This document shows positions 8,683-62,986 of a stretch of 64,000 nt of DNA, piece after piece. Both the position numbers and the translations under genes were made by a program. Source of the DNA: Peronospora farinosa (Eukaryota; Oomycota; Peronosporomycetes; Peronosporales; Peronosporaceae); assembly GCA_947646735.1 (NCBI GenBank), contig CANTFK010000966.1:248001-312000 (forward strand), written 5' to 3'. Each line of letters starts with the position of its first letter. The stretch's first letter is position 1. The notes below the pieces were generated by a model. It saw nothing but the letters and a program-made list of their open reading frames with translations, had not been told where the DNA came from and made no database searches.

Positions 8683-10727
8683 ATGTCTTCAATTCCTTCG
8701 TCACGTGAGTCCTTTACTGTGCCCTTTGTTTACCGTCCATCTCTAACTCGTGTCGTTACAGCAATGTCTTCCCCTGGTTCAGACCCACCGTCCGCTGACC
8801 CACCGTCTGAAGAGCCGACCTCGATCGTCGTCGCGCCTTCGGTTGAACCTCCATTCGAAGTGGCGTCCTTGGTCGACCTTCCCGGGCCGGTATCTTCACC
8901 GTTAAGTTCTACCGAAACTGTCGTCGTTGATAGCTCTCCCGTCTTCACCGCTTTGCCTCCTGCCAAGACGGCAGATTCTTCTGCCACGTCGGTCTCCATG
9001 GTTGACAACCCGTCTTCCGCGCCAGTCGACGTGCGTGTAGATCTGCAGGAACTGCAAGCTCTCGTAGACGCGCAATCTCGCCGCATAGAGGAGTGCGAGG
9101 GTCGGCTAAGTGTCGTTCCCCCTTCGGCCACCTTATTGGCCACCCGTTGTGAGCGTTTGGAAGAGACGTTACGCGACAATTCTCGACTGGTGGTCCAACT
9201 ACGCGAAGCTCTTCAGCGCGAGACGACACTGGTGGATCGCCTGCGATGTAAGGTCGACCACATTCGGAGCCGTTACTCGCTTCTTGCTGCAGATCTCGAT
9301 CACGTCGACTTCTCCAATGGGCCACCTCCAGGACCAGCTCCTCCTTCGGCAGCTTCGCCCCCGGCCGTTTGTTCACCTTCGAGGCCGGCCAAAGATCTTG
9401 GTAAACGGTCCAGGCGGCCGTCACCCCGTGTGCCTGCCAAATTTTCCAAGTCTCCGAGAGCCGACACATCCGCGATACCGCTTCGGAAGTCTCTGGTGAC
9501 CGCTCTCCTGTCATGCTGGAGTCTTCGGACGACGACTTCAGCGACGACAGCGAGACACTTCGGGCGGCCCTGTCCAAGTCTCGTTCTTCCGGTCGGCACC
9601 CCACCAGTGCAAAGTCTTTACGTCTTCCGCCGACGTCCACTCCCCCATTGAGGACCACCTCGGCTTCCGTCCTCTCGCTGAAACGGGCGATGTTCGGGAC
9701 GTCGGACTCGGAGACTGAGTCGTCTGCGGAGAAAGAAAAGAGCGCGCCCACTGTTGAGTACAACAATTAGCCCCTTTTGACCGACTCTTGCTTGCTCCAC
9801 AAGGATGCCATCATCCCATGTTACATGCAGCTGAAGACCTTCTCTGGCGCCTTGGCCGGTCGACCTGGTCAATTCTTGGTGCATTGTAACAATGTCTCCA
9901 AAAGTCTTGGTCGACCAGCTGGATCTACCTTGGGGTTGGTTCGGTCCTCCGGACGGAAACCTCGACCGCCATCCAAAATGGAAGAAGTCGTTGTTGAACC
10001 CTCCGATGATCCAGAGATTGCTGGCGGCGGAACCTTGGGTAGAAGCTCGTGTTCCCATTCAACCCATTTCCTTCCGACCTGTTGGCTGGTTCGCCCAGTT
10101 GGCAGCGGCCTACATCCAGTTTGACGAAGAGCATAGTCAAGCTCTTTGGGAGGCGACCCACTGCCTGTGGATCTCCAAGGACCAAGCACGCGCGAACTCT
10201 TTCCTCGCGTCCTACTACAACGCGAGCCTTGAAAATTCCATAGCTTCAACACGATCAGGTCCAGACAATTCGAGATCGAGATCGCATTCGCCCAGATCAA
10301 GATTCCCCCAATTTTTCTGGGTCACCAACCCCAGAACCTCCCCGAAACTCTCCTTCATCTTCTACAGATGCGAGTGAAGAAGATCTTTTTGGGTATGGTT
10401 CCGATCAGACGGACGACTCTCTGCTGGCTGCGTTATTCTCTTCTCGATCGACTTCTCGACGACGCACTGTGGATCGATCTCCAGTATTTCCACCTTCTTC
10501 ACCGATCGTGGTGGACTCACCTAGTCCAGTTACGTCTCCTCATAAAACTCCGACACGAGTGTCGATGACAGATTAATTTGGCGAACCCTCCAGTGAATCT
10601 GAGGATAGACTTAGTATCGACAGCGAACCTCTGGATTCCTTGTTATCAACTGATGACAGCGGAGGAATTCTTGGATCTCCCCGATACCACAATCTCTCGC
10701 GATCTTTGGATTCCAAGTTATCGTGAT
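8683..10727 (+). pseudogene. A3 antisense accessory gene: coiled coil and basic segment
   Basis: Lies between the (lost) pol and 3' LTR on the strand opposite the element. From the ATG at 8683, with or without the candidate intron, it reads MSSIPSS... and PGSDPPSADPPSEE. A Pro/Ser/Val-rich segment is followed by a coiled coil (about 9020-9300: ELQALVDAQSRRIEE, LEETLRDNSRLVVQLREAL). The basic stretch KRSRRPSPRVPAKFSK (about 9400-9450) looks like a nuclear localisation signal. After a shift near 9500 it continues MLESSDDDFSDDSETLRAAL to a stop at 9770. A further shift leads to FDEEHSQALWEATHCLW (near 10115-10170) and a Ser/Asp-rich tail with stops at 10573 and 10725. Function unknown; broken by at least three lesions. 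Counterparts exist in A4 and A5. Confidence 0.65.
8705..8761 (+). other. Candidate intron in the A3 antisense gene
   Basis: 57 bp: donor C|GTGAGT at 8705, branch-like CTAAC at about 8743-8747, pyrimidine-rich tail and acceptor TTACAG at 8761. Splicing joins MSSIPSS to PMSSPGSD in frame; because 57 is a multiple of three, an unspliced message also stays open. A6 has gtaggg at the matching place. Confidence 0.45.
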
Positions 10728-10919
10728 CGAGTCCCTCGATCGTCATCCGATACGCTTCCTTGGTCCGCTCGCAGAATCAGCTTGTTGTGCATTTCAAAAT
10801 TGGATCTGGATATATTCTTCCACCATTATTCGAAACCTAGAGGTTACATATTTCCTGCTCCCTCTGGAAAACTCCAGAAACCTAGTGATTCCGAGTGGTC
10901 ATCCGGGTTGATCACCTCT
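10728..10919 (+). other. Tail of A3 interior, no clear gene
   Basis: A short open stretch (SKPRGYIFPAPSGKL) may be a shifted continuation of the antisense gene. It is cut by the B1 LTR at 10920. Confidence 0.3.
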
Positions 10920-11248
10920 TGTAACGGGGCTAGAACGTACCGTCACTAGCTTACACGTGCGCTTGAGAAAGACTCAAGCCCAAGTATTAGGTATTAAGTA
11001 AATTTAACTCTGATTTTTATTTTGGTTTTAATTCGTACTAATTACGAAGATTTTAGTCGTAATAAATACGACAGTGTTCCCGCCTTTCGGGAACCACACA
11101 ATTTCAGGTTGATTTATCATTGGTCCATATTGGGGACTTTAGGCCCAATAATAAATTACCACACTGTGCCCGCTATTCGGGCCCAACCTGCCTACATATG
11201 TAATTGTTTATTTGTGTTAATGCTATATGTGTAATGTAGCCCATTACA
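10920..11248 (-). repeat. B1 3' LTR
   Basis: 329 bp, plus-strand ends TGTAACGGGG and CCCATTACA. Contains invertible blocks gttcccgcctttcgggaac and gcccgctattcgggc, likely stem-loops. Confidence 0.9.
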
Positions 11249-11261: not shown

Positions 11262-11292
11262 ATGACAGCACTCACCAACCGTGAGTGCTCAA

Positions 11293-12744
11293 ATGTCGAA
11301 AACCCTTCGCCCACAAACGAACAAGCAATGTCCGGAGACCCAACACCCAATCCAGCAGCACGCCCAAGGATACGTCAGCGGGAGTGCATCGACCAGCATC
11401 ATGGCGCGGCAGCTCATACCTTGGTCGCTGTACGACTTGTCCGGAGCTCACGCTCCGGACTCACTGGACATGATGCGGGAATACTTCCGCCGATTTCAAA
11501 AACTGCGCGGGAAAGGTCTTGATGGAATCGAGCATGAAGCTCTACAACGTTCTTGGTGCGCCTTCATCCAACATTGGAATCGGATGCTCGAGGATGGTAG
11601 CAGCTTCCAGTTATGGCTCACCAATCGAGAGGAGCTTCGCGCCGATCACTCCATCGGCGCGCTACGCGAAAGAGTGTGTGAGGAAGCTTGGAATGAGGAC
11701 CGTCTCTGCTTCGTTCATGTCAATGAAGGATGCCAATCTTGTGACTCGACTCCACGCCCAACTCATGACGAATGGCGACGACACATCGCTGAGTGTCCAC
11801 TCAGTGATCGCGAACGAAATTGGATTGCAAAGTATGAGCGAAGTCTGAGCGAACGAAGAAGCGCAGTTATTCGTGGTGCGCCTCGCTGGCAGCACCACTC
11901 GCGACAGCGGAGTCGATCTCCGCGGGATCATCAGCGCAGGGCAGCGACACGTTCGCTTGCCCGTCCAGTTGCGCGATTCTCGCCTCGCAATCGTGATATG
12001 TATTCACCGCGACGTTCTCGTTCACGGCGTCGTTCTCATTCGCGACATCGTTCTCGTTCGCGACATCGTTTGCGTTCGCGACATCGTTCTTGTTAGCGTC
12101 ATCGTTCCCGTTCCCGACGACGTGAATCTCCTTACCGCTCTCGTTTGTCACGAGAGCGTTCGCGTGCTCGCCCGCCTTGAAATAGTCCGACTTCGTGGCT
12201 TCATACGACAGAACCACATCTGGAACGTCACGAAGGAGCGAGGAACGTGGTTCCCATGTATCCTGCTCGGGAGGGAATCCAAGCCAACGTACTCGGTACC
12301 TGCGCGCGGATGGAACCGCGCGCTTCTCATGAACCGGCTGCAGTGCTGGTTGTGGAGGGTCCTCGTGACCCACAATGCGGTCTACAATCCAGCGGACCTG
12401 TCCCTCCGTATCAACAAGCGGAGGAGGGCCCTCGCGATGGTAATGCTGGCGTCCTGGTTGCCCAGGACGATATTGATTAGGCCGTGAACATAGCTGCCGA
12501 TGCTCAGCTGGAGGCTGAGGCTACCAGTGAACGTGCTGCCCAGGCGGAGAAGACTGCGAGTGAGAACCGACAGTCGAAACGTGAACTGCTCGAACGGATA
12601 AGGGTTCTGGAGCGCCAGGTTCTTGGTCAGGTTCAGACGGGATCGAGACCCCGACCCATGTCATCGGCGCGTCGAGCGCGACGGGAAGGCCGTTCGACTA
12701 ACGGACCCCTGAAGCCGGCGTCGGAACCAAACCGTGAAGCGTAG
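11293..12744 (+). pseudogene. B1 antisense accessory gene: Arg-Ser protein with coiled coil
   Basis: On the plus strand, opposite the element. ATG at 11293 (MSKTLRPQTNKQ). An N-terminal domain of about 190 residues contains LQRSWCAFIQHWNR, SIGALRERVCEEAW, LCFVHVNEGCQSC (CX2HX4CX2C, a possible zinc site) and IAKYERSLSE; B4 has LQRSWCAFIRRWN, LCYVHIREGCPTC and IARYERSLSE, about 45% alike by eye. An Arg-Ser-rich segment follows (SRHRSRSRHRLRSRHRS), broken by TAG at 12094; the same frame stays RS-rich to 12180. After shifts, 12484-12744 has a coiled coil (KRELLERIRVLERQVL). About 12200-12350 lies opposite the pol chromodomain. No known family recognised. Confidence 0.7.
11867..12373 (-). pseudogene. 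pol: B1 pol C-terminus with chromodomain
   Basis: The chromodomain motif YRVRWLGFPPEQDTWEPRSS lies near 12305-12245. Chromodomains of this place in Ty3/Gypsy integrases are thought to direct integration to marked chromatin. An Asn/Asp-rich tail (VANENDVANENDA) is the reverse complement of the Arg-Ser repeat of the antisense gene, so the two low-complexity stretches impose each other. Stop at 11867. Confidence 0.8.
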
Positions 12745-19973: not shown

Positions 19974-19992
19974 CTACCCCCCCCCCCCCTCT
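19974..19992 (-). other. B3 polypurine tract
   Basis: Complement is GAGAGGGG... with a G-run followed by TAG and the LTR start. Confidence 0.8.
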
Positions 19993-20037
19993 CTAAGACG
20001 ATTTTTTACATTTTGTAAAACATCGAATAAATTGACG

Positions 20038-21349
20038 ATGCCGCCAAAACGTGGAAAGGCTGTTGGGTCACCTGCAAAGGCGACCATGCAGACCAACACC
20101 AAGCACACGCGCCGCGATAAGTCTCAGCCGTCGCGAAGTGTCTCTGTGGCAATGCCGACATCTAATGTCAGCTTGCCAGAAGAGTACTAGTCCATCCCAC
20201 TAGGTGCGGGTGAAGACTTGTCTCTCATTGTTGACTACAATAAGAGCACGCCATTTTCATCACCCCAAAGTACAGTGCTCTGATGGGACATTTGTCCTTA
20301 TCATTAAAGACACTCAACCTTCAGGAAGCTTCTATGCTTTCTGACAGCGAGGGCCATGCCTCGTCGTCTGCGTCAACGAGCGCAGCGACCACAACTGAGC
20401 GCGCTGCTTCGAAAGAAACAGCCGCGAATCAACAGCAGGTCGGCGATTCTAAATTTTCCGCCTCTATTAACCCTACATCTGATGTCTTGACATAGCATAA
20501 TGGAGAGTCAGAATCAGGAGAGGGTGAGCAAATAGCCCCTTCGACTTCAGAGTCGGCCTCACTAGCACGCAGTCGCGAGGGCGGCTACGTGAGTGGCGGT
20601 TTGCCAGCAATGCCGTCGCCATCCGAGTGGTCACGCTGGCGTGTAAATAGTTCGACGCTTTTTAGGCGTGCGACTATTAACGCTGATAACTTTTTAGCGT
20701 CTTTCTATCATATAAAAGACAGTGCAAAGCACTTGGTCGTGCTTTCCCTATCTCCGTCGTACTTCGTTCGAACGACACAACCGACAAATACGAAGCAGAG
20801 CTCCTGCACCCGTGAAACACCGCATGTAGATGCAGTGAAACAGCGGTTGCAGCGAATCGGATTCATTATGACGCGTGCAAGTAAAATCTGGGGTGGTAAA
20901 TATACCCCCAGCTCCTCCTTGTCACGCTGCCCCTACTAGTTCATCAGGACCTAGCAGAGCAAGTTTAGCTGGTGCTTTTGCTCATAAGCATTTACCAGCC
21001 CAGGCACGTCGACACGCAACGCGTCAACCTGGTTTCTAAGAGTCAGAATTCTTCGAGCATCCTTTCCACTGGACAAGGATCTGAAGCTTTTGCTTCACAT
21101 GGTGGTGAACCAACAACTTTTAATAAAGGAAGCGTATGTTCCCACCCGCATTCACCAACACAGGTGGCGCCCAAAAGGAGCGGCGATTACGCCCAACTAC
21201 TCGCATCTGCTTATCCTGCTGCCATTCAGTCGCAGGTTAAGATCGCTGCGCTGACGAAAGAGGTGGCGGATCTTTCGAGTCAAGTCTCGCGACTGACTTT
21301 GGATCTGCGCGATGTGAGGGCGAGAGACCGTCAGGGGTTGACCGCCTGA
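20038..21349 (+). pseudogene. B3 antisense accessory gene, decayed
   Basis: Opposite strand to the element, starting MPPKRGKAVGSPAKATMQTN at 20038. Stops at 20188 and 20280, and shifts at about 20280, 20500 and 20950, break it. Recognisable parts: the Ser/Ala/Thr-rich stretch SSASTSAATTTERAASKETA, ATINADNFLASFYHIKDSAK, and the C-terminal coiled coil VKIAALTKEVADLSSQVSRL ending at 21349. The position and terminal coiled coil match the antisense genes of B1, B4 and B6. No known function. Confidence 0.55.
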
Positions 21350-22830
21350 AAGCCCATTTGGACATACACGAGCGACTGGTGATGAGGTACCCGCGTCCAA
21401 CGCGGATTCCTCTTCGATCATCGATTCCTCTGTCGTCGGTCTCGTATACGGGAAGTCGTTCACCTTCCTTGTCGCCTGATCGGCAATGACGCTCGACTTA
21501 CAGTTGACGTCATCATCGGTTTCGTTAGACTGATGCGGATATGTGATCTCTTGTGGATCCACATACCGTTTTAGACGACCCACGTGAAATACGTAGTGCG
21601 TCTTCATATACGGTGGGAGATTGAGCCTATGGTTTAGGTCTCTAATTTCCTCGACCACCGTAAATGGCCCAATGAATCGAGACAGTGGCTTAGTAGTACC
21701 ACCAGGTAGTACATAAATTGCATTTTTAGGTAGGGTAGCAGTACTTAATAGCACTTTGTCCCTCACACTAAACTGTTCATTGTTTTTGCGACCATGCTGG
21801 TCTTCGCTCACGCTTTTAGCATCCAGCTCGCCTATGACGCCTCCAAGAGGTCGTTCATGGATCGACGCTGTTGATAACACTATAGTGTCATCATCAAGGA
21901 GCACTGGCATTTCTTGCCGTGCCTTCTCTGTGACACCTATAGGCGTCGTGACCACTGCTAAATTAGCAGTGTCACTAGGGAAACCTTGGCCCTTTTTTGC
22001 ATTCGTACCGAGCGAAGTGAGGGGCCCTCCCCTACTAAGACTCGGGCTGCGTACAAACGAGACTGGCGTTCGAGGATGACGCAGTCCGTTAATGTGAAAC
22101 GTTGTTTCACCCGTACTGGCGTGAACACTGTTATAAATAGCGAACTCCACGAATGACAATTGCCTGCTCCATTCTTTCATATGTCCCAACAGTACGCAAC
22201 ACATCCGCCACGAATCGATTGGCACGTTCTGCTTAGCCATCGGTCTCAAGATGATCGGCTGTTGACATAATGGAGCTTGCTTCCCAGAAACTCATACACA
22301 TGACACCAAAAACCTGACGTAAAACGTGGGTTCCGATCCGATACTATGGACTCAGGCATCCCGTGTAATAGGTACACATGAGACATAAACAAGAGGGCAG
22401 CCTCTTTTCCTGAGATCTTGGTGCTACATGGTGCCAAATACACCATCTTGCTCAGTCTTTCTACAAAGACGACGAGCCACGTCCTGCCGTTATGGTCAGG
22501 CGGTAAGCCAAACGATGAAGTCCAAACTGAACGACTTCCAACAATTCGTTGGAATCGGCAGTGGCTTCAGTGGCGCACTGTTAGAAGGTGCAGGCTTTAT
22601 GCGCTGACACTCTTCACAAGAGAGAATATAGTTGGCCACCCACCGATATAGGTGGGGCCACCAAAATTCCTCTGACACTCGTAAGAATGTCTTTTCACGG
22701 CCCAGATGCCCACTAGATGGCGCATCATGGCACTCGTGAAGTATCATCAGCTTGAGATCTGTGTCATGAGGGACATAGATTCTCAAGGGATCACAGGGTG
22801 ACAGTTGATGCCATAACAAGCCATCACTGT
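21197..22830 (-). pseudogene. pol: B3 integrase
   Basis: Zinc domain HECHDAPSSGHLGREKTF and LSCEECQRIKPAPSN (22750-22590), core SLDFI, SDRNPRFTSGFW and a partly lost E region, then VRDKVLLSTATLPKNA and FHVGRLKRYVDP. Shifts near 22500 and 22250. No chromodomain motif is visible after the C-terminal domain; the tail instead lies opposite the antisense coiled coil (about 21200-21350). Confidence 0.8.
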
Positions 22831-26695: not shown

Positions 26696-28155
26696 TGTGG
26701 TGGAGAGGGATTCGCAAAATTGCTGATGCGATCCCAACTCTCCACTGGCGCCCGGACGATCGACTAACGGAGGGGGTACCCCGATTTCGTGTGTATAGCC
26801 TTCCTCACCTTGTGTACCCGTCGGTAGGGCGGGTTGCTCTCTTCTCGGTAGACTTGAGTCGATGTTGAACTTGATTGTGTTAGGGATAGGTGGGGGGGCG
26901 ATCGCGTGGAATTCCTCACACGATCGCAGTTGTTCTTGGGGTGCTCTATTTGAGTCGCCCTGATCTCCCTTGAGATCGCCTTGTCCAAAATGTAGATACT
27001 TGATCCGCTTGCCTTCTGACCACTTGAGCCGTCTCGCGATCTTGTATCTGGACTTCTTAGTCCTCTGCGTCCAATCGCAGCTTGAGTTGTTTTGTTGAGA
27101 ATTCTTGCAATCCCTGGCCAAACAATCCAGGGATATCACTTGCGTAGTATGTAGACTTCCTTGAGACGTCGGGAGGCCAAAGAATCCAGCCCGGAAGAGA
27201 AGTCGACACGTGTATTTAGAAGCAAATTGAACTCTGTTAATGTTAACCAATCAAATACCAAAACCTATGATCTTGACTATCTGTAGCTCAGGATCTGTTG
27301 CCACGTATCGCCCTTTCGGAAAAATCAGATCTTGTAATGTGGTCCACTCCAATATCGCCGCGATCTGGATCGCTACCTCACTCGGATATAATACCATTTT
27401 AGTACCAGATCGCGGTACTAAATAATTAGTACCAGATCGCGGTACTAAATAATTAATATCGGATCGCGATACTAATAATTAATATCGGATCGCGATACTA
27501 ATAATTAGTACCGGATCGCGGTACTAATAATTAATATCGGATCGCGGTACTAAATAATTAATATCGGATCGCGATACTAAATAATTAATATCGGATCGCG
27601 ATACTAATAATTAATATCGGATCGCGATACTAAATAATTAATATCGGATCGCAGTACTAAATAATTAGCATCGGATCGCGGTACTAATAGTTAATATCGG
27701 ATCGCGATACTAATAATTAGCATCGGATCGCGATCCGCCGGATCACGACTTGTCCTCTTCACCGTTTCTCAGGGTCATGTGAGATAGTTCATCTATGTGA
27801 CATGTCATATCCACCATTCCAGTCCTCCATAGCGACGTGATCCACACCAGACCGTCCTCCACATGCTTGGATGTACCCATCTTCCTCCTTAGCGACCGCG
27901 TTCACGCGGATCGCCATCGGAAATACTGGAGATCGCAATAGCGTAGTTTCTAGGCCATATTTGACCCCACATAGAAGTGCAAACTACACCATTCACTGTT
28001 TTCCATCCTATTTGACATCGTCTTGAAACCTTTCTGCGAGATCGCGACTCATCAATATTGGCCACGAGATCGCGACTCATTAATATTGGCCATTTCGGAC
28101 TTAACCGAAAATATGCGATCACACTTTGCGAACTTCACTCCTTCACTTCGCCACA
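26696..28155 (-). repeat. A5 3' LTR
   Basis: 1,460 bp, plus-strand ends TGTGGTGGAGAGGG and CACTTCGCCACA. Contains the family block ctcaccttgtgtaccc and an AT/GATCGCG array. Small ORFs here and in the 5' LTR are not supported as genes. Confidence 0.95.
27397..27735. repeat. 26-27-bp GATCGCG array in the A5 3' LTR
   Basis: Twelve copies of a unit like taataattaatatcggatcg plus cgatac. The 5' LTR has thirteen and a partial copy. It occupies the position of the gaccaatgaggg array of other family A LTRs. Confidence 0.9.
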
Positions 28156-28242: not shown

Positions 28243-29715
28243 ATGGCCAGATCTACACCCGAAAACGATCGCCACCCCCAAACTGGTGTGCTCGTCACGC
28301 GCGATCCAACGATGAATTCTTCTGCCGGATCGCGTATCCTGCTCCCGTCTACCCGGATAATCCTTCCTCCCGTTACGGATCGTCAAAACGCGATCTCGTT
28401 GGTTTCTTCATTGTATGACCGCCTGGAAGCCCAGGATACCATCGTGGAAAGCTATCACTCCATGGAAAATGCCTTGCAGGAGCAGGAATTTCGTGGAAAT
28501 CAGCTGGAGACGGAACTCAACTCGTATCACGAGTTGGTGCCTCGACTGTGCACATTCGTCTTGCGTCGAGATGAAGAGTTGCGTCAACAACTTGATGCCG
28601 CTCTCCACATGGCTGAAGGTCTCGACGAAGAACTGAACCAGCTAACGGATCAGTCTCAGGAGATCGCCGATCTGAAGAATGCCTTGTTTCGAGCCAATGC
28701 AGAGAAATATCGCCTGCAGGATAAATTCCGCCGTGAGGCGGCCAATCTTCAGCGAACTCTGGAAGGAAAATTCCGGCAGCAGATCGCGTCCCTCCAACAG
28801 CAACTGGACTCCATCCTCGCACAGCGTAATACAGCAGACAGTGCTTTGGCCGCTGACTTTCGACGCATGAAAAGCAAGGCATCCAAGTACAAGAAAGCTC
28901 GTTCTCAGGCCCAGCAAGCCGCGAAACAACTGCAAGAGACACTGAGCGCGCTCGAGCTTGATCATGATCGCCTCCTGAGTACGAGTATTCGGAACGACGC
29001 AGCTTTGGATCGACTTCGTACCGAAGTTGCAGATCGAGAGGCAGAGCGCGATCTGGCCATCCAGGATCGAGATTTACTTCGTTCGCATCTGGCAGAATTG
29101 GCTACGGGCTTACTTCCTTCTCCGACTAGCCTTCTCGCGCTTTCCAATCCCTCGTCACCCAATCGCAAACGTGCGTCATCTTCACCGACTCTGGACGTCC
29201 CCTGTAAACGTCCCCGCAGCGCTTCCGGTACTTCTGCTCAATCTGCGACCTCGGAGGGATCTGGCATTCCAGCGCGATCTGGTACTCCGGCGCGATCTGA
29301 TACTTCGACGCGATCTGATACTTCAGCGCGATCTAGTACTTCGGCGCGATCTGGTACTCCGGCGCGATCTGGTACTCCACCGCGATCTGGTAATTTAACG
29401 CGATCTGGTACTTCGACGCGATCTGAAATTCCGGCGCAATCCGGTATTTCGGCACAGTCTAATACTTTGGCGCGATCTGGTACTCCGGCACAATCTGGTA
29501 CTTCAGCGCGATCTGATTTCATCTCCTCAGCATTCAATACAATTTCACTGTTTTCGTCTCATTCTTTTGGTCGTTCTTGCAATTGTCTTCTTGTTTTTTG
29601 GGCCTTTACAGCCGCGATCTGGTCTTTCAGACTTTCGATCGACACTCGAATTCACATATATCCTCGTCTCCCCAGCTATACAACCATCTTGTACAGCCAT
29701 TTCCACTCTCCGTAA
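28243..29715 (+). CDS. A5 antisense accessory gene: long coiled coil, NLS-like segment, repeats
   Basis: An uninterrupted frame of 490 codons on the strand opposite A5, ending 14 bp from the pol stop (tail to tail). ATG at 28243 (MARSTPENDRHPQTG). Residues about 60-300 are a near-continuous coiled coil (EELNQLTDQSQEIADLKNAL, ANLQRTLEGKFRQQIASLQQ). A bipartite nuclear-localisation-like segment follows: NRKRASSSPTLDVPCKRPR. Next come about fourteen SGTPAR/SDTSAR hexapeptide repeats from 18-bp DNA units (29265-29515). The end is hydrophobic (CNCLLVFWAFTAAIWSF) and may be out of frame. A4 has the same coiled coil plus NLS order. Not a known protein to me. Confidence 0.75.
   Translation: MARSTPENDRHPQTGVLVTRDPTMNSSAGSRILLPSTRIILPPVTDRQNAISLVSSLYDRLEAQDTIVESYHSMENALQEQEFRGNQLETELNSYHELVPRLCTFVLRRDEELRQQLDAALHMAEGLDEELNQLTDQSQEIADLKNALFRANAEKYRLQDKFRREAANLQRTLEGKFRQQIASLQQQLDSILAQRNTADSALAADFRRMKSKASKYKKARSQAQQAAKQLQETLSALELDHDRLLSTSIRNDAALDRLRTEVADREAERDLAIQDRDLLRSHLAELATGLLPSPTSLLALSNPSSPNRKRASSSPTLDVPCKRPRSASGTSAQSATSEGSGIPARSGTPARSDTSTRSDTSARSSTSARSGTPARSGTPPRSGNLTRSGTSTRSEIPAQSGISAQSNTLARSGTPAQSGTSARSDFISSAFNTISLFSSHSFGRSCNCLLVFWAFTAAIWSFRLSIDTRIHIYPRLPSYTTILYSHFHSP
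29265..29515. repeat. 18-bp repeats in the A5 antisense gene
   Basis: About fourteen copies of gcgatctggtacttcggc, encoding SGT(P/S)AR. The word cgcgatc links it to the LTR and linker arrays of the same element. Confidence 0.9.
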
Positions 29716-32402: not shown

Positions 32403-32932
32403 TTACCGGAGGCCGATCTGGATCGAAGTGTCTGAGGATCGGGGTATTAGCGATCTTGGCTTTCAACATGGTAAATGCGATCATCGCTTTTTCCCATCGA
32501 GTCCGTCCTTCTGGATCTGGATCGTCCCCAATATCGAACTTTTGATCTGAATCATTCCTGGTTGCGACAGTCGAATCCAATGCATTCATCTTATCAGAAC
32601 AGCGGATTTCATGGAAATCTGCTTCCCTTAATTCATATAGCACTGACGCATAAATCGCAAAGTCTTCGACAAATCGACTATAGTAATTCAAGCTTCCCAG
32701 AAACGATTGCATCGATCGCAACGTTTTTGGGAACGGAATATTTCACCAGCGATCCCAAATCCTTTGGATGAGCTTCGATTCCTGCAAGTGAGACTTGATG
32801 ACCCAGGTAATTCACTTTACGTCGTCCCCAGAAACGTTTAGCGAGACTGATCGACAAATTCCATTCATTGCATACTTCTAGCAATCGCTTTACCTTATCA
32901 TATAAGGAGGCCCACGAGGTTGCTGGAATCAA
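32296..32932 (-). pseudogene. pol: A5 RT thumb/connection, in two frames
   Basis: IPATSWASLYDKVKRLLEV and YLGHQVSLAGIEAHPKDL (32932-32678), then SMQSFLGSLNYYSRFVEDFA (32721-32296). A base is missing at about 32935, so the YIDDIL active-site codons (NYIDDILIPA) are present but out of frame with the upstream RT. Frame also changes near 32715 and 32335. Confidence 0.85.
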
Positions 32933-37732: not shown

Positions 37733-39234
37733 TGTGGTGGAGTGGAATTCGCAAAATTGCTGATGCGATCCCAACTCTCCACTGGCGCCCGGACGACCGA
37801 CTAACGGAGGGGGTACCCCGATTCCGTGTGTATAGCCTTCCTCACCTTGTGTACCCGTCGGTAGGGCGATTTGCTCTCTTCTCGGTAGACTTGAGTCGAT
37901 GTTGAACTTGATTGTGTTAGGGATAGGTGGGGGGCGATCGCGTGGAATTCCTCACACGATCGCAGTTGTTCTTGGGGTGCTCTATTTGAGTCGCCCTGAT
38001 CTCCCTTGAGATCGCCTTGTCCAAAATGTAGATACTTGATCCGCTTGCCTTCTGACCACTTGAGCCGTCTCGCGATCTTGTATCTGGACTTCTTAGTCCT
38101 CTGCGTCCAATCGCAGCTTGAGTTGTTTTGTTGAGAATTCTTGCAATCCCTGGCCAAACAATCCAGGGATATCACTTGCGTAGTATGTAGACTTCCTTGA
38201 GACGTCGGGAGGCCAAAGAATCCAGCCCGGAAGAGAAGTCGACACGTGTATTTAGAAGCAAATTGAACTCTGTTAATGTTAACCAATCAAATACCAAAAC
38301 CTATGATCTTGACTATCTGTAGCTCAGGATCTGTTGCCACGTATCGCCCTTTCGGAAAAAATCAGATCTCGGAATGTGGTCCACTCCAATATCGCCGCGA
38401 TCTGGATCGCTACCTCGCTCGGATATAATACCATTTTAGTACCAGATCGCGGTACTAAATAATTAGTACCAGATCGCGGTACTAATAATTAATATCGGAT
38501 CGCGATACTAATAATTAATATCGGATCGCGATACTAATAATTAGTACCAGATCGCGGTACTAATAATTAATATCGGATCGCGGTACTAAATAATTGATAT
38601 CGGATCGCGATACTAAATAATTAATATCGGATCGCGATACTAAATAATTAATATCGGATCGCGATACTAAATAATTAATATCGGATCGCAGTACTAATAA
38701 TTAATATCGGATCGCGATACTAAATAATTAATATCGGATCGCGGTACTAATAATTAATATCGGATCGCGATACTAATAATTAGCATCGGATCGCGATAGC
38801 ATCGGATCGCGATCCGCCGGATCACGACTTGTCCTCTTCACCGTTTCTCAGGGTCATGTGAGATAGTTCATCTATGTGACATGTCATATCCACCATTCCA
38901 GTCCTCCATAGCGACGTGATCCACACCAGACCGTCCTCCACATGCTTGGATGTACCCATCTTCCTCCTTAGCGACCGCGTTCACGCGGATCGCCATCGGA
39001 AATACTGGAGATCGCAATAGCGTAGTTCCTAGGCCATATTTGACCCCACATAGAAGTGCAAACTACACCATTCACTGTTTTCCATCCCATTTGACATCGT
39101 CTTGAAACCTTTCTGCGAGATCGCGACTCATCAATATTGGCCACGAGATCGCGACTCATTAATATTGGCCATTTCGGACTTAACCGAAAATATGCGATCA
39201 CACTTGGCGAAATTCACTCCTTCACTTCGCCACA
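37733..39234 (-). repeat. A5 5' LTR
   Basis: 1,502 bp, plus-strand ends TGTGGTGGAGTGG and CACTTCGCCACA. Promoter of the element by position. Nearly identical to 26696-28155. Confidence 0.95.
38433..38808. repeat. 26-27-bp GATCGCG array in the A5 5' LTR
   Basis: Thirteen units plus a partial one, against twelve in the 3' LTR. The order of unit variants differs between the two arrays. Confidence 0.9.
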
Positions 39235-40675: not shown

Positions 40676-41190
40676 CAGACTGTAGCAAGATCCTTGGAAG
40701 GTAGACCGGTCCCTCATTGATAGACCTGGTCCCTCATTGGTCGGCCCGGCCCCTTCGTTGGTAGACCTGGGTCGCCTACGGGGAGACCTCGACCTTCCAC
40801 GAGTCAGGTGTATAGAAGAATGGATAACAAAGGAGGAAGATTGCCAAGATCACCTGGAACAGAGGAAAGTATGGCAGAGGAGATGGAAGATGGACAGACG
40901 CTAGAAATAGGATCGAAGTGAAAAGAAGATTCATGTTCAAGGGAAGACCTAAACGGGTGGCCCAAACTTGCCTTTGAGGCGTGGGAATAAAGCTTCAGGA
41001 TGGGGTACAGAAGACAACCGATATTTAGTAAGCCACAGCCACGCGGAATCCGACACCCGAAGGGCCTCAAGCAGGTCGACTGGGTCCGACCCCTCTTCAC
41101 GACCAGAGAACCAATAAACCACACGGCGGGTTCGAGGAAGATGACGGAAGAGGGGGTCCAGGAAAATGTCGAGATCGCAGTGGCCCTTGC
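40676..41190. repeat. A4 spacer with gaccaatgaggg-type minisatellite
   Basis: Four to five copies of ggtccctcattggtagacc at 40710-40800, inverted relative to the plus-strand LTR unit in A3. The rest (40800-41190) separates pol from the antisense gene stop and shows no gene. Confidence 0.7.
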
Positions 41191-42176
41191 TCATCCCAAT
41201 GAAGATAAGGTCGACCACCTCCCACCACGCTCGAGTCGCCCAACTCCGACGCTTCTTCTTGATCGGGCCGAGGTTGGGGAATGGTTGGGACTTGAATCAT
41301 GGAGACTTGGGGACGTAGATGTTTTTCGAATGCGCTTGAGCACGGGCTGATCCGAGTCAGAAATTTTTCGCTGGCGCTTGTTCCGTTGTGGAGATACTTC
41401 ACTAGAAGCAGCGGCTGGTGACGACGTTGAGGGCGGCGACCCGGTTGGTGTAATATGCTAGACAAACGAGAGAAGAGAGAACTCCGATCCTTAACTTCCT
41501 GCGCAAGTTGATCGCGCTCAATCCGGATCGCGTCAAGCTGAAGTCGGGTATCATGGAGTTGCTGTTTGAATTGGATGTAGCGAGACTTAAATTGGCTCTC
41601 GGAATCTTTGGCTTGAGCAGCCTGTTCATTGGCCGACTTGGCTGAATCAAGCGCAGCTGCCAGCTTGTTCTGGACGGCAGCCAGCTGGAATTGAAAACGC
41701 TCCTCGGCCTTGTGGCGAGCTGCTGTGGCGTCGAGTAGAGAGGAACGCAGATCCGCGATCTCCATCTCCAGCTGGCCGATCTGTTCCAGTTCTTGGCGAT
41801 ACTCCTCTGCCGATCGAGTCGCAATCTGCAATTCGCAGCACAAGGAATCATACTTGTATGACACGAATTTCGCGAAACTTCCAGCCAATTCACGATCAGC
41901 TTGAATCTCGCGTTCTAAACGAGCGCAGCGAGTTTCTTGGGTGTGCAATGCATCGTAAAGTGCTTCGTAATTGTCCAATACGTCCTTCTGGGTGTTAAGC
42001 AGTCGAAGAGTTGGTCAATTTGGGCCTTCAAAGCAGCCCGATCCGTGGTCGGAATGACCCTCGCCCGACCACCAGGATAAACTTGCAAGCGATCGTGGAG
42101 TGGGCGCGATCGACGGTTGGTGGGAATCCGCGATTCGGTTAGAGGGCCCAGAAGCTTGACGTGGGAATGTCGACAT
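41191..42176 (-). pseudogene. A4 antisense accessory gene
   Basis: Opposite to A4. ATG at 42176 (MSTFPRQASGPSNRIADS). A shift near 42020 leads to the coiled coil: LHTQETRCARLEREIQADRE, LEQIGQLEMEIADLRSSLL, KLAAALDSAKSANEQAAQAK, QLDAIRIERDQLAQEVKD (41960-41480). After shifts near 41470-41400 a bipartite nuclear-localisation-like segment reads KRQRKISDSDQPVLKRIRK (near 41370-41315), then Ser/Pro-rich to a stop at 41191. Same order as A5, whose sequence is diverged, so the architecture is kept. Confidence 0.7.
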
Positions 42177-45059: not shown

Positions 45060-45281
45060 GAGGCTACTGGGACCGACAGGGGCGGCGCTGCTTAATCCCG
45101 AGAGAGGGGCGCAAAGCAGGAACAGCGAGCTCACGAAACGGTGACGCGTGGACATTAACAAAAATCCAGGTTTCTGATTGGTTGAATTTTCAGTCAATAG
45201 AAAGCTCCTTGGATGGTTGGCCATGGTACCTCGTCGGTCGACCTCGGCTTCTCGTCGGTAGACCCGGTCCCTCATCGGTCG
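45060..45281 (+). other. A6 deletion junction and minisatellite
   Basis: 45060-45214 is unassigned. 45215-45281 has copies of ggtccctcatcggtcgacc, continued at 52879 after B4. Confidence 0.6.
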
Positions 45282-45600
45282 TGTAACGGGATAAGGACCC
45301 GTTACCGTCTTACACTAAAAGGGCGTTGAGGAAGCGCTCTTAATTAACTAGTAAATATAACTCTGTTTTATTTTTGTTTTAGTTTCAATTCGCAGTAAGT
45401 GCGAATATGTTCCCTAGCTCATGGGAACCACTCAATATGGAAGTCAATTTATTATTGGCTAATTATTGGGTCTGGCACCCCAATAATAAACCAATAATAA
45501 AATGACGCGCAGTATCCGCTATTCGGATACTGCCCTATGCCTACTTATGTAATTATGTATTAATCCTATAACTACTTATGTAATAGATAGACCCATTGCA
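45282..45600 (-). repeat. B4 3' LTR
   Basis: 319 bp, plus-strand ends TGTAACGGGATAAGG and ACCCATTGCA. Differs from the right LTR at about seven positions. The outer palindrome gtaacggg/cccgttac is at 45283-45306. Confidence 0.9.
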
Positions 45601-45636: not shown

Positions 45637-47043
45637 ATGGACCCTAGGCGTCCACAAAACAATGTCTCTGACAGCCAGAACTGGGAACACCAAGCGACAA
45701 TCCGTAGAGAGAAGGCGCCGCAGGTCATGTATGGGGACTTGAAGCCGTGGCGCTTGTATGGTCTTGAAGGTGCTGTCGAACCCGAGCCACTGGAGGTCAT
45801 GAAGGACCTTTTCACGCGATACCGTACAGTGAGAGGCAAGGCGACGAACAACGCAAATACCGACGATGCGTTGCAGAGGTCTTGGTGTGCCTTCATCAGG
45901 CGCTGGAACGCGAGCCGACGTGAAGGAACGTCCTTCACGTCCTGGTTAGACGGTCGCGAGGGAACGCGTGATAGACACGCTATTGGCGACCTGCGCCGGC
46001 GCATCTGTCGTATGACTTGTGACGAATATCACCTTTGTTACGTCCACATTCGTGAGGGATGCCCAACGTGCAACGTGGGCAGGTCGCGACCGGTCCGGCA
46101 GGAATGGGACGACTTAGTGTGTGCGCGAGGCATGCCCGACCATATTCGTTCACGAATCGCCCGTTATGAGAGAAGCCTTTCGGAGCTCCAGGGGTCCGAG
46201 CTACGGCGAGTGAGAACGCGTCCTTACGATCGCCGACGGCATTCACGTAGCCGAGGTCGTCAACCGTATCATCCATATGCTCCCGAGCCTCGTAATAGGT
46301 CTCGGTCTCGGAGTCGCTTGGGAGGTCGTCGCGGTTTCGTTGCTCGCGAGCATTACGGCTCGCGAGATCGGGGATGGAACCGTCAGCGTCAGTCGCGATC
46401 ACCGACTTTCTACGGGACTCGTAGTCCTCGACCACGTCCGGGACATCTTGGGACAGCGTACTCGATGGCTCCCATGTATCGTCCGCCGGGGAATATCCCA
46501 ACCAGCGAACCCTGTAATGTTTCTCGACATGCTTCTTCATGGGCGCCGAGTTATTACTCGGCGCCTGGGGCTTGTGATCCTCGTGATCGACGATTCGGTC
46601 GACAATCCAGCGTTGCGCACCCGATGCATCGACTAAGGGAGGAGGAGCATCACGACGGAAGACCTCTGGCGATGAGCGCCGATTCTCGTAGTCGGGCGCC
46701 TGTACAGTCGAATGATGAGCTGCGCCTACTCCGCGCTGAAGCCGAGGAATCGAAGAATGCCCTACTTGATTCTCGCGAGATGGCTGAGAGAGCTCAAGAT
46801 CGTGCGGATGCTGCGACTGAGGCTGCTGAGCGGACCCGAAGTGAGCAGCTGGTACTGGTTGAGCGCCTACGTCAACTTGAGACGACTGCGTTCGGAGGGC
46901 CCCAGCAGATCGAGTCTGCACGCGTTCGGGCAGGACTTGGTCCCAGTCGTCGTCAACGTCGTCGTCAAGGGATGTCGGATTTCGAGCCGGCACAGAAGAG
47001 CGGGGAAGATTCGAAGGGAGATCCGCCGGCAGGTAAGCCTTGA
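45637..47043 (+). CDS. B4 antisense accessory gene, intact 468-codon frame
   Basis: On the strand opposite B4, from MDPRRPQNNVSDSQNWEH to the stop at 47041. N-terminal domain (residues about 30-190) with LQRSWCAFIRRWNASRREG, HAIGDLRRRICRMTCDEYHL, CYVHIREGCPTC (possible zinc site) and IARYERSLSELQGSE; close relative in B1. Residues about 195-260 are Arg-Ser/Arg-rich (RRRHSRSRGRQ, PRNRSRSRSRLGGRRG). A coiled coil occupies about 360-430 (ELRLLRAEAEESKNALLDSR, RTRSEQLVLVERLRQLE). A basic segment follows (GPSRRQRRRQG). The last two thirds overlap pol (45980-47043) on the other strand. It might bind RNA; that is inference. Confidence 0.75.
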   Translation: MDPRRPQNNVSDSQNWEHQATIRREKAPQVMYGDLKPWRLYGLEGAVEPEPLEVMKDLFTRYRTVRGKATNNANTDDALQRSWCAFIRRWNASRREGTSFTSWLDGREGTRDRHAIGDLRRRICRMTCDEYHLCYVHIREGCPTCNVGRSRPVRQEWDDLVCARGMPDHIRSRIARYERSLSELQGSELRRVRTRPYDRRRHSRSRGRQPYHPYAPEPRNRSRSRSRLGGRRGFVAREHYGSRDRGWNRQRQSRSPTFYGTRSPRPRPGHLGTAYSMAPMYRPPGNIPTSEPCNVSRHASSWAPSYYSAPGACDPRDRRFGRQSSVAHPMHRLREEEHHDGRPLAMSADSRSRAPVQSNDELRLLRAEAEESKNALLDSREMAERAQDRADAATEAAERTRSEQLVLVERLRQLETTAFGGPQQIESARVRAGLGPSRRQRRRQGMSDFEPAQKSGEDSKGDPPAGKP

Positions 47044-48010
47044 GGCGCCCGACGTAGAACGTCGGGTGCAAACGCATAGATGTAGGTATGTCTAGCGTGT
47101 AAGCGTCACCATGCACCTTAACAACCCCAAATGGGCCAATATATCTTGGCGCTAACTTATTAGCGCCCAAGTTTGTCACTGAGGTGTTTGGTAATCCACT
47201 TGTTGATAACAATACTCTGTCACCTTCTTGAAATGTCAACATATTCTTTCGACCTCTTCTGTCTGCATTCTCCTTTTGCTTGTCGACTGCCTCTTGTAAT
47301 GCATCACGCACAAAACGCGTGATTCCTTGTCGTAATAGTAGAAATTCGGTTACTGTAGCCGAACTTACAGGCGACGTATGCTCTTTTGGAGCAAAATTGG
47401 CAACGGGAGACGCGATGGAAAGCATCGCGTCAGGAGTCGATATGCCGTTGGCCACGAAATTACCAGCATTAGGTGCATCGGCAGCAACCTTATGCGCATC
47501 GTAATCGATCATCAATACTTTCGTCGCAATTCCATCCGTAGATACTCCCCCACCAAGCTTGGAGACAGGGTGTTCTGAAGCTGAGAGAGCAAGCAGCGCC
47601 GGAACGCGAGGATGCCTCGCGTTGTTAGCGAAAAAGGGCGTCAATCCGGTTGACGCATGGACTGCATTGTTGATTGCAAACTCTGCAAGTGGGAGAAATG
47701 AACTCCATGATGAGAACGATGTTGCATAACTGCGCAAGACATCTTCGAGCACTCTGTTCACACGCTCCGTTTGCCCATCCGTCTTTGGATGGTCCGCCGT
47801 AGACATAAGCAACCGCGTGCCTAATAGCTGGAATATTTCGGCCCAGAAAGCCGAAGTGAAACGCGGGTCACGGCCCGCAACAATAGATTCTGGCAAGCCG
47901 TGATGCCTAAAGATAAGATCAATGAAGATCTTCGCTGTCGTCTCCGCCGTAATGTTGGCGGAGACCGGAGCAAAATGCACCATTTTGCTGAATCGATCCA
48001 CTAGAACCAA
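45980..48010 (-). pseudogene. pol: B4 integrase and chromodomain
   Basis: Open frame of 676 residues. Integrase: LVDRFSKMVHFAPV, VAGRDPRFTSAFW where relatives have SDRDPRF (catalytic Asp replaced by Gly), TDGQTERVNR, then FQEGDRVLLSTSGLP, LHPTFYVGRLKAYLP. A low-complexity linker follows and then the chromodomain YRVRWLGYSPADDTWEPSST (about 46520-46430) with VPDVVEDYESRRK. The long tail to 45980 is unlike known domains and lies opposite the antisense N-terminal domain. Joined to upstream pol by a shift at 48010. Confidence 0.85.
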
Positions 48011-48939
48011 TACGCTTGTGCATCCGGTGGAAGGCCAAAGATAAATTCCATGCTGACCGAGCGCCAGGCTTCCGTAGCAATCGGAAGCGGACGCAATGGG
48101 GCTTGTGAGGATGGCGCAGGCTTCACACGCTGACAGGTTTCACAGGAGCGCACCCATTTCTGAATGTATTTATACATTCGCGGCCAGAAAAATACGCGAG
48201 AAATAGCTGCAAACGTCTTTTCGCGACCCAGGTGTCCGCCAGCTGGTCTGTCGTGAAATTCATGAACCAATCGGGCTCGAAGGTCGTCATCAGTAGGGAT
48301 GACGACACGCGGGGAATCAAAGACGTCCATCGTGTACGTCAGCAACGGACCGTCAAGCGCGTCACGCTTGATGTTGTCGCGTGTTGGTTTCGTCAACTTC
48401 GCGAGTAATTTTTCGCTCGGGTCCCTGAGATAGTTGATGATTCCTGCATAGAAGGAATCATTCGCGTAGGATTCAGCGATCTGAGTTCGGATCGAAAGCA
48501 CGGGGGTCGAAATCACCGCATGAAGTCCCAGTTCAATACAACACACACAGATATCTTCGTCGTCATCAACATACGTTTGATGACCCATATCACGCCGAGG
48601 ATCGTAATCAGGACGACGAGAAAGCGCATCAGCGAGAATGTCATTCTTGCCAGGCTTGTAATGCACCACAAAATTATACTCGGCGAAAAATGACAACCAC
48701 CGTGCCATACGCTGGGACAAGTGAGGACTCTTGACGGCGGTACGCAATGATGCGTGATCTGTGTAGATAGAAAACATCTTTTCACCGAGCAAATATACTC
48801 TAAACTTGATTAGCGCGTAACGCATAGCCAAAAGTTCCTTGTCGTGTACCGGATAATTTTTCTCGGCAGGTTTCATCTGTCGTGATTGAAAACTCACAAC
48901 GCGCTCTCGACCCTCGTCATAAATTGCATGAGGGCACAT
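48001..48939 (-). pseudogene. pol: B4 RNase H and integrase zinc domain
   Basis: KELLAMRYALIKFRVYLLGE, TDHASLRTAVKSPHLSQRMA, KPGKNDILADALSRRPDYDP, then HEFHDRPAGGHLGREKTF and RSCETCQRVKPAPSS. The end SVSMEFIFGLPPDAQ has Glu in place of the first integrase Asp (usually SMDF). Confidence 0.85.
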
Positions 48940-52558: not shown

Positions 52559-52560
52559 GG

Positions 52561-52878
52561 TGTAACGGGCTAAGGACCCGTTACCGTCTTACACTAAAAG
52601 GGCGTTGAGGAAGCGCTCTTAATTAACTAGTAAATATAACTCTGTTTTATTTTTGTTTTAGTTTCAATTCGCAGTAAGTGCGAATATGTTCCCTAGCTCA
52701 TGGGAACCACTCAATATGGAAGTCAATTTATTATTGGCTAATTATTGGGTCTGGCACCCCAATAATAAACCAATAATAAAATGACGCGCAGTATCCGCTA
52801 ATCGAATACTGCCCTATGCCTACTTATGTGATTATGTATTAATCCTATAACTACTTATGTAATAGGTAGACCCATTCA
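52561..52878 (-). repeat. B4 5' LTR
   Basis: 318 bp, plus-strand ends TGTAACGGGCTAAGG and ACCCATTCA. Confidence 0.9.
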
Positions 52879-61455: not shown

Positions 61456-62110
61456 TGATTATGAGGTCGGAGACCAAGTATTACTAAATGCTAAAAATCT
61501 ACCTACCAATGTAGTATCCGCTGTCTTTAAGACGAAGTTGCGTCCGCGCTTTATCGGACCCTTTACGGTCATTGCCAAGAAAGGCACAGCGTATACGCTT
61601 AACTTGCCGCGCAAATTGAGTACACATCCTGTGTTCTATGTCGGCATGCTCAAAAAGTATCGGGATCCGTCCCAAGTAAATATTAAGGCGCTGGCGCCGA
61701 GACCATTGGCATTGTCGCGGGACGGAGCATCTGCACCAACAGGTCAAGCTGACCCTGCATTCGGGTTCGGCTCACTTCCTGGGACTCAAGACGGGAGTTC
61801 ATCGTCTGCCTTTTCTCACGAAGGGACCGCACCTCTTGGACAAGCTCGGCATGAGCTTGTACAGATACACCGGCCTCCTCCGGCTTTGCTCGATGCGCAG
61901 GGGAACCTTCAGTTTCATGTGGAGCGTGTACTGCAGAAGCGTCGCCGCCATGGTGAAAACCAGTATCTGGTAAAGTGGCGGGGTTATCCCAAGTCGTGGA
62001 ACTCATGGGAGTTTGAGATTCCCCTTCGGCAGGACTGCCCATACGCCGTGGACGTTTTTGAGCGTCGTGCGCAGGGTAAGCCTGTTGGCGCTGACGCTTC
62101 TCACCAGTAA
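61367..62110 (+). CDS. pol: B6 integrase C-terminal domain and chromodomain
   Basis: INDYEVGDQVLLNAKNLPTN, LRPRFIGPFTVIAKKGTAYT, HPVFYVGMLKKYRDPSQV, a Gly/Ser/Pro-rich linker (61700-61850), then the chromodomain NQYLVKWRGYPKSWNSWEFE (61960-62020). Stop at 62108. Authentic sequence starts near 61425. Confidence 0.85.
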   Translation: MSYDICKMKWLIVKINKKEYADAKGRGCINDYEVGDQVLLNAKNLPTNVVSAVFKTKLRPRFIGPFTVIAKKGTAYTLNLPRKLSTHPVFYVGMLKKYRDPSQVNIKALAPRPLALSRDGASAPTGQADPAFGFGSLPGTQDGSSSSAFSHEGTAPLGQARHELVQIHRPPPALLDAQGNLQFHVERVLQKRRRHGENQYLVKWRGYPKSWNSWEFEIPLRQDCPYAVDVFERRAQGKPVGADASHQ

Positions 62111-62986
62111 TGGTGGGTGTAGGCGGGTTAGCGGCCTTGGCCTGTCGTGGACTCGGCGGCTACAGGTGTAGCCGAAACATTGGAATGCTGGGTAGCAGAC
62201 GCATAATGCGTTCGTTGGGATTTCAATTTTCCCCGGGCCTTCAGTTTAGCGTAATCGTAACGCATCTTCCGCTCGAGTCGAACATCTGCCACATCGGCAC
62301 TTGACCGTAGGGCCCACATGCTGCATAAACGTCGCGCATAATGCGCCCAGCGGCTGAAAGCCGTGTCTTCTTCGTCCTCGGTTTTCCCCGCGAACAGAAG
62401 GATGGGAACACCCTTTATGGGAGGAACTGGTGCACCACGCACTTGCCTGTTAAGGCGTGCCAAGTATTGGCTTTGTGTAGTAATGTGGGGTTCCAGATAT
62501 CGTTGTCGAAGTGCCGTTCGCGTGGCACACATCCTCAGGTGAAATGGCCTCAGGCCCAATGGTCCAACCAGAAAGGGAATGCCCAGATGCCTCCTTTAGG
62601 CGTTCTTCCACCGTAGGTGGTTTGAACCTGTACTGTCGGTGGTCCTGAAGTCTCGCCATATTCTTCGTCCGGCTCTTGGCGCCTTCCTCTTGGTCGATGG
62701 TCTGCTGTTGCTGCTCGTCGAGTGGGTTGGTAACCGTTGCAGTTGACGATACGTCAGGCAGGTCACGTAACGCTGTTAGCGCATCTGCAGCACCACTTTC
62801 CGGGAACGGATTCTGTGCATGACTTGTGTCATCTTCACCCGTGAGGGTGGCTAAAGGGGACCCATCGGGTCCCACAAAGACGGTGTCACTTTCGTAATCA
62901 ACCGCTTCGTCGAGGTTGTCGTCAACGAGGTCCCGAAGAGTCTGTGACTCACTGCCAGGAGGCGTCATGTTAGGTGCCGTAAACAA
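61683..62986 (-). pseudogene. B6 antisense accessory gene
   Basis: Opposite to B6. Starts MFTAPNMTPPGSESQTLRDL (62986), acidic, with YRFKPPTVEERLKEASGHSL. After a shift near 62540: TALRQRYLEPHITTQSQYLA, EDEEDTAFSRWAHYARRLCS, RLERKMRYDYAKLKARGKLK. After a shift near 62150: the basic GEKRQRQQAYPAHDAQKRPR, and finally the coiled coil LVQEVRSLREKRQTMNSRLE to a stop at 61683. About 61870-62060 lies opposite the chromodomain and the coiled coil lies opposite the low-complexity linker. Two shifts break it. Function unknown. Confidence 0.65.

What the first reader, a model, noticed from the sequence alone, without database searches (positions are those of the whole stretch)
8683..62986. Antisense coiled-coil gene between pol and 3' LTR in every element where the region survives
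Seven elements from two Ty3/Gypsy families (A3 8683-10727, A4 42176-41191, A5 28243-29715, B1 11293-12744, B3 20038-21349, B4 45637-47043, B6 62986-61683) carry a gene opposite to pol at the same place. Sequences are hardly alignable between families, but each includes a coiled coil. This points to an old or repeatedly gained accessory gene. Antisense ORFs are known in some plant elements and in HTLV-1 and HIV-1; whether it is described for oomycete elements I do not know.
Basis: partly seen in the sequence, partly recalled or inferred. Interest (0 to 1): 0.9.

Follow-up and report, generated by a model that had tools for sequence, protein, structure and literature searches.

The report
Antisense genes in oomycete Gypsy retrotransposons
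Several lineages of jumping elements in a water-mould genome carry an extra gene written backwards between the polymerase gene and the element's end, and its protein is kept by natural selection, so these elements probably depend on an undescribed helper protein, as some plant elements and leukaemia viruses are thought to.

Summary
Each of the seven window regions matches antisense genes with open copies elsewhere in the same 46.9 Mb genome, though only two window copies (A5, B4) are open in one frame. There are four protein families, not two. A (A3, A4, A5) sits in elements with two RNase H domains and a chromodomain, as in the published Chronos group; B1/B4, B3 and B6 sit in chromodomain Gypsy elements, where the gene overlaps the pol tail. 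Purifying selection is direct: in the A C-terminal domain, variants shared by 2-4 copies are 17 nonsynonymous of 56 (39.9 expected), while singletons are neutral. Diverged pairs of B1-type and B6-type copies give dN/dS 0.17-0.24 outside the overlap. The A gene stands beside at least 94 of 122 A-lineage pol ends. Homologues exist in Peronospora and Phytophthora. No known domain was found. Best reading: real accessory proteins, probably nuclear regulators like plant antisense ORFs or HTLV HBZ. The kind is known in plants and Botrytis; I found no report for oomycetes. Transcription and function were not tested.

The parts
28243..29715 (+). A5 antisense gene, 490 aa: N-terminal coiled coil plus 18-nt-unit Ser/Arg/Gly repeat; shortened variant that lacks the C-terminal domain of full-length relatives (837-898 aa)
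   Evidence: open frame; repeat; 125 genome matches; full-length relatives
26696..28155 (.). 3' LTR of element A5 (element reads on the - strand); antisense ATG lies about 90 bp inside its inner edge
   Evidence: pair with 37733-39234 at 96%
37733..39234 (.). 5' LTR of element A5
29730..32402 (-). A5 pol, later part: RNase H (RT_RNaseH), second RNase H (RVT_3), integrase, SH3-like, chromodomain; its stop is about 15 nt from the antisense stop (tail to tail)
   Evidence: Pfam
32929..35454 (-). A5 pol, earlier part: aspartic protease and reverse transcriptase
   Evidence: Pfam
35600..36910 (-). A5 gag region with two CCHC motifs at 35624 and 35681
8353..10257 (+). A3 antisense gene, broken into three frames; 70-87% to the open 761-aa gene in L074; ends inside the C-terminal domain
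10499..10946 (+). piece of the A-type C-terminal domain from another A copy (39-51% to L036)
40952..42176 (-). A4 antisense gene remains: coiled coil (41511-41999) and end of the C-terminal domain (40952-41260)
11266..12741 (+). B1 antisense gene (B1/B4 type), broken in the window; 89% to the open 480-aa frame in L066
12698..13927 (-). B1 pol, integrase and SH3-like part
45637..47043 (+). B4 antisense gene, 468 aa: N-terminal helical domain with a C-x2-H-x4-C-x2-C motif (read by eye), Arg/Ser-rich middle, Ala-rich helix, basic tail
45980..48139 (-). B4 pol end (integrase, SH3-like, chromodomain); overlaps the antisense frame by about 1060 nt
45281..45597 (.). 3' LTR of B4; antisense ATG about 40 bp inside
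   Evidence: 98% to 52560-52876
52560..52876 (.). 5' LTR of B4
19987..21525 (+). B3-type antisense gene, broken in the window; 47-67% to the open 521-aa frame in L065
61686..63016 (-). B6-type antisense gene, broken into three frames; 86-92% to the open 443-aa frame in L064
61367..62107 (+). B6 pol end with chromodomain, overlapping the antisense C-terminal coiled coil
   Evidence: chromodomain by Pfam in the relative L064
63079..63723 (.). 3' LTR of B6
   Evidence: 99.5% to 55319-55962

Best explanation
These are real protein-coding accessory genes of Ty3/Gypsy elements, read from the opposite strand, starting just inside the 3' LTR and ending at (A) or inside (B1/B4, B3, B6) the end of pol. 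Shown here: position, open frames, conservation across species (A, B1/B4), purifying selection on the amino-acid sequence. Inferred: transcription starts in or beside the 3' LTR, since the A5 and B4 ATGs lie about 90 and 40 bp from it; the proteins form oligomers through the helices, enter the nucleus through basic clusters, bind nucleic acid or chromatin through the basic parts, and regulate the element's own transcription, RNA fate or silencing, much as HTLV HBZ/APH do and as is proposed for plant antisense ORFs.
For: Gene status: the A C-terminal domain in 23 copies against L036 has 17 nonsynonymous of 56 variants shared by 2-4 copies (39.9 expected, z -7.1, ratio 0.18), while 107 singletons are neutral (0.97); the A coil has 0.41 for variants shared by 2-4 of 29 copies. 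B1-type N-terminal domain dN/dS 0.18-0.24 in the three pairs with L068; B6-type non-overlap part 0.17-0.22 in the two pairs with L071. 15 of the 30 best-scoring A copies keep 837-898 aa. A gene found beside 94 of 122 A-lineage pol ends; my density estimate for chance is about 2. Cross-species homologues. Next to a pol frame open for at least 1872 aa in the same element. Regulator reading: basic nuclear-signal-like clusters in A, B6 and B3 types, Arg/Ser-rich stretch in B1/B4; heptads in A, B6, B3; gag regions of A5, B1 and B4 have CCHC knuckles of their own. Analogy from papers: passages of PMC7264820 and PMC10186651 seen.
Against: No transcript, protein or localisation data were available. 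No Pfam, NCBIfam or PDB sequence match names a function. No nuclear-signal-like cluster was found by the pattern in B4 or the B1 type. In the overlap with pol, the B1-type tail shows weak antisense constraint (0.65-0.84 in the pairs with L068) against 0.34-0.42 for pol, and the B6-type tail shows about none (1.08, 0.90 in the diverged pairs), so those tails may be by-products of pol. Three closer B1-type pairs give 0.51, 0.61 and 1.18 for the N-terminal domain. The B4 family alone gives a mild signal (0.62 for variants in 4 or more of 27 copies). In the A coil a minus-strand frame is as low (0.38) as the antisense frame (0.41), and its singletons are not neutral (0.67).
Confidence: 0.5

Rival explanations
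1. Chance open frames or mirror frames of GC-rich pol, not genes.
For: Long spurious frames do occur opposite these genes, and the B tails overlap pol.
Against: The A gene does not overlap pol, reaches 898 aa, and its C-terminal domain is under purifying selection in its own frame; B1-type and B6-type parts outside the overlap are also selected; homologous proteins in other species.
Confidence: 0.03
2. The antisense RNA, not the protein, is the functional product: it pairs with the sense transcript and sets the level of RNA silencing.
For: Convergent or overlapping genes would make double-stranded RNA; PMC7264820 raises this for plant elements (passages). In Phytophthora infestans, small RNAs of both senses map along Gypsy Pi-1a and Albatross elements (passages of PMC3522703).
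Against: An RNA function does not explain selection against amino-acid changes. It could act in addition.
Confidence: 0.07
3. Structural or replication helper: an RNA- or capsid-binding protein packaged in the particle, or a factor carrying the pre-integration complex to chromatin, rather than a transcription regulator.
For: Coiled coils and basic stretches fit nucleoprotein packing; the B1/B4 domain has a Cys/His motif.
Against: Gag already has CCHC knuckles; a gene on the other strand needs its own transcript, which suits a separately timed product (inference).
Confidence: 0.25
4. Counter-defence: a suppressor of host silencing or of DNA or histone marking of the element.
For: Four proteins without clear homology at one place look like fast turnover under an arms race.
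Against: The A C-terminal domain is conserved and strongly constrained (ratio 0.18), unlike a typical arms-race protein.
Confidence: 0.15

Closest known systems
Plant antisense aORF-3R (Grande gene23, RIRE2, Retand TRP28, PvRetro13)
   Different: PF04195 (TRP28) was not found in this genome, but that search rang in no control genome either, so absence is not shown. The proteins scanned here hit no known domain above its cut-off. Overlap with a chromodomain pol tail in the B types.
Boty/BcGypsy1 brtn of Botrytis cinerea
   Same: Antisense gene in a fungal LTR element (named in PMC7264820 and PMC8365987, passages seen; Zhao 2011 itself not read).
   Different: Fungus, not oomycete; sequence could not be compared.
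HTLV-1 HBZ and APH-2/3/4
   Same: Antisense gene expressed from the 3' LTR; HBZ is a nuclear bZIP protein (passages of PMC10186651).
   Different: No bZIP family among the Pfam matches here; retrovirus, not retrotransposon.
Chronos group of oomycete Ty3/Gypsy elements (PMC5348765)
   Same: A-lineage pol has Gypsy RNase H, a second RNase H and a chromodomain.
   Different: The words antisense and additional ORF do not occur in the held text of that paper, so the extra gene appears undescribed there.
Extra ORF3 types of bdelloid rotifer LTR elements, one with a coiled coil (PMC5408684)
   Same: Accessory ORF downstream of pol, some with coiled coils (passages seen).
   Different: Antisense orientation of the ORF is not stated in the passages seen; animal elements.

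Membership tests
Chronos (oomycete Ty3/Gypsy with archaeal-type RNase H) | Ty3/Gypsy-type reverse transcriptase with native RNase H | tested here: met
   RVT_1 and RT_RNaseH in A5 pol
Chronos (oomycete Ty3/Gypsy with archaeal-type RNase H) | second RNase H next to the native one | tested here: met
   RVT_3 in A5 (E 2.2e-10) and L061 (8.9e-12)
Chronos (oomycete Ty3/Gypsy with archaeal-type RNase H) | that RNase H belongs to the archaeal-type clade; RT groups with Chronos | not tested
   no tree was made
Chronos (oomycete Ty3/Gypsy with archaeal-type RNase H) | chromodomain at the pol end | tested here: met
   PF00385 25.4 bits in the A5 tail (cut-off 25.1), 24.9 in L061 (just below); not reported when the whole 890-aa A5 piece was scanned
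antisense aORF-3R of LTR retrotransposons | ORF antisense to gag-pol between pol and 3' LTR | tested here: met
   A5, B4 and relatives; the B types partly overlap pol
antisense aORF-3R of LTR retrotransposons | present in most copies of the family | tested here: met
   A lineage 94 of 122 pol ends; not counted for B
antisense aORF-3R of LTR retrotransposons | antisense transcription | not testable with these tools
   no RNA data
Retand TRP28 (PF04195) protein | PF04195 domain | tested here: inconclusive
   no match in the genome, but controls silent too; not among the Pfam matches (E up to 1) of the antisense proteins scanned
HBZ-like bZIP protein | bZIP domain | tested here: not met
   no bZIP family among Pfam matches with E up to 1 for the A, B1/B4, B3 and B6 proteins scanned

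The most novel reading that the evidence does not exclude
Ty3/Gypsy elements of Peronosporales as a rule carry an antisense accessory gene, gained at least four times from unknown sources. The A type is a new protein family whose C-terminal domain has His, Cys, Asp, Glu and Arg residues invariant in the 10 proteins of alignment A6 and may bind metal or be an enzyme. Together with the second RNase H, this makes oomycete Chronos and plant Tat/Retand elements convergent twice over, pointing to a shared requirement for an antisense-coded nuclear factor.
Probability: 0.3. Interest if true: 0.8.

Novelty: new variant of a known kind. Interest (0 to 1): 0.62.

Why it matters
It extends antisense accessory genes from plant cases and a fungus to abundant elements of an oomycete genome, with direct evidence that the protein is kept by selection. 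Four families at one place in one genome make a natural experiment on what a retrotransposon needs beyond gag and pol. A number of 'hypothetical proteins' in Phytophthora and Peronospora annotations are members.

Tried and rejected
Rejected: chance frames (selection); RNA-only function as the whole story; substitute nucleocapsid (gag has CCHC knuckles); one common family for A and B (HHalign, thin alignments for B3 and B6). A first reading that the long A copies lack pol (one search listed no frame in L061) was wrong: the frame ran off the piece.
Full report
What was checked. The window is G000:C254:248001-312000 of a 46.85 Mb genome in 274 contigs. The nearest named relatives of its antisense proteins are from Peronospora and Phytophthora, so I infer an oomycete of that family; the species is not known to me.

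Anatomy of A. Element A5 reads on the - strand: 5' LTR 37733-39234, gag region with two CCHC motifs, protease, RT, RNase H, a second RNase H (RVT_3), integrase, SH3-like and chromodomain, then the antisense gene 28243-29715, then the 3' LTR 26696-28155. The two stops lie about 15 nt apart in A5, which is a shortened variant. Full-length relatives (L036: 873 aa; 15 of the 30 best-scoring copies 837-898 aa) have a coiled coil, a Ser/Arg/Gly repeat of variable length and a C-terminal domain of about 270 aa. In the same element as L036, pol is open for at least 1872 aa. L074 (761 aa, stop to stop) and L075 (715 aa) are diverged open versions with the same C-terminal domain and a coil before it. 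A3 and A4 in the window are broken copies; A4 is a mosaic.

How general in the A lineage. A pol-tail query gave 131 matches, a capped list. I used the 122 that reach residue 294 or more and dropped 9. They were compared with most, not all, listed rows (small fragment rows left out). A convergent A-type gene on the other strand stands beside 94 of 122: 44 of 50 at 80% pol identity or more, 12 of 19 at 71-79%, 38 of 53 at 65-70%; chance would give about 2 by density. The 28 without one were not read; one earlier 'miss' that I did read (L075) had the gene, so 94 is a lower bound. The median distance from the antisense domain match to the pol match is 202, 288 and 198 nt in the three groups, and 17 of the 26 added lie at 253-261 nt.

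Anatomy of B. B1/B4: 468-480 aa, N-terminal helical domain with C-x2-H-x4-C-x2-C (my reading), an Arg/Ser-rich middle, an Ala-rich helix and a basic tail; 106 and 147 genome matches for B4 and B1. B6 type: 443 aa, 151 matches, 30 listed with a 443-aa frame and no stop. B3 type: frames up to 537 aa, 150 matches at 46-65% to the broken window copy besides itself. Lists are capped, so these are lower bounds. The three representatives read (L064, L065, L066) overlap the pol tail with its chromodomain, and by their coordinates a sense codon covers antisense positions 2, 3 and 1 of the next codon in each. The B4 pol piece scanned has one RNase H region and no RVT_3.

Selection. Copies should decay neutrally after insertion, so I split variants by how many copies share them. 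A C-terminal domain: singletons 77 nonsynonymous of 107 (77.7 expected, ratio 0.97); shared by 2-4 copies 17 of 56 (39.9 expected, ratio 0.18, z -7.1); shared by 5 or more 2 of 8. A coil: 0.67, 0.41, 0.37 for the same classes (29 copies for the coil, 23 of 29 with over 90% coverage for the domain). One minus-strand frame is also low, because its wobble falls on many of the same sites: 0.37 in the domain, where the antisense frame is lowest (0.18), but 0.38 against 0.41 in the coil, so the coil alone does not tell the frame. B4 family, 27 of 30 loci (one is the window copy): 0.95 singletons, 0.83 for 2-3, 0.62 for 4 or more. Pairwise dN/dS: B1-type N-terminal domain 0.24, 0.20, 0.18 with L068 and 0.51, 0.61, 1.18 in the three close pairs; B6-type non-overlap 0.17, 0.22 with L071 and 0.68 in the close pair; B3 type 0.65, 0.54, 0.57. 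In the overlap, three pairs with L068: antisense 0.65-0.84, pol 0.34-0.42; B6 type antisense 1.08, 0.90 and pol 0.51, 0.63 in the diverged pairs (0.66 and 0.68 in the close one); B3 type antisense 0.62, 0.52, 0.45 and pol 1.33, 0.76, 0.97. So the genes are real, but the B1 and B6 tails may owe their pattern to pol. Shared variants of related copies are not independent, so z-values are optimistic.

Families. A homologues: 12 proteins for the C-terminal part. B1/B4 homologues: 14. Profile comparisons found no homology of A with any B and one marginal link of B1/B4 with B3 in the C-terminal helix. No Pfam match of the antisense proteins reached its curated cut-off; PDB matches for A are coiled-coil proteins.

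Mechanism. Established here: place, frame, conservation, selection. Inferred: antisense transcription from the 3' LTR region; oligomerisation; nuclear entry (basic clusters in A, B6, B3, none by the pattern in B1/B4); regulation of the element. The comparison with HBZ and plant aORFs rests on passages of PMC10186651, PMC7264820 and PMC11963269 and one section of PMC7264820. In P. infestans, small RNAs of both senses map along Gypsy elements (PMC3522703, passages), so an RNA-level effect may run beside the protein.

Known or new. The kind is known in plants and Botrytis. In the library searched I found no report for oomycetes; the Chronos paper has no occurrence of 'antisense'. Chronos and plant Tat elements are described as convergent for the second RNase H (PMC5348765, PMC10508981, passages seen); the antisense gene would be a further parallel with Retand, which PMC11963269 describes. 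The B4 element lacks RVT_3 in the piece scanned and still has the gene, so the two traits are not tied.

Noticed in passing
window 28243-29715, L032: A5 and L032 share the same shortened antisense gene without the C-terminal domain (95% identical), so a deletion variant seems to have been copied.
   Followed up: partly
window 54490-56834: 831-nt inverted repeat at 99% (54490-55320 / 56004-56834) flanks a B6-type LTR (55319-55962).
   Followed up: no
window 63502-64000: Part of the B6 LTR (63502-63732) is repeated inverted at 100% after only 37 nt (63770-64000).
   Followed up: no
window 1-5906: Large inverted repeat 1-1025 / 4883-5906 at 99%.
   Followed up: no
protein P0022: RT and RNase H joined to the A C-terminal domain in one frame on a 1.9-kb contig: rearranged element, chimeric assembly or something new.
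   Followed up: no
protein P0023: Phytophthora fragariaefolia protein joins PF06839 (GRF zinc finger, name recalled) to the A C-terminal domain; gene-model chimera or a captured domain.
   Followed up: no
genome matches: Most A-lineage pol tails at 65-70% identity show one TAG inside the match, also in near-identical copies; perhaps only an earlier pol stop.
   Followed up: no
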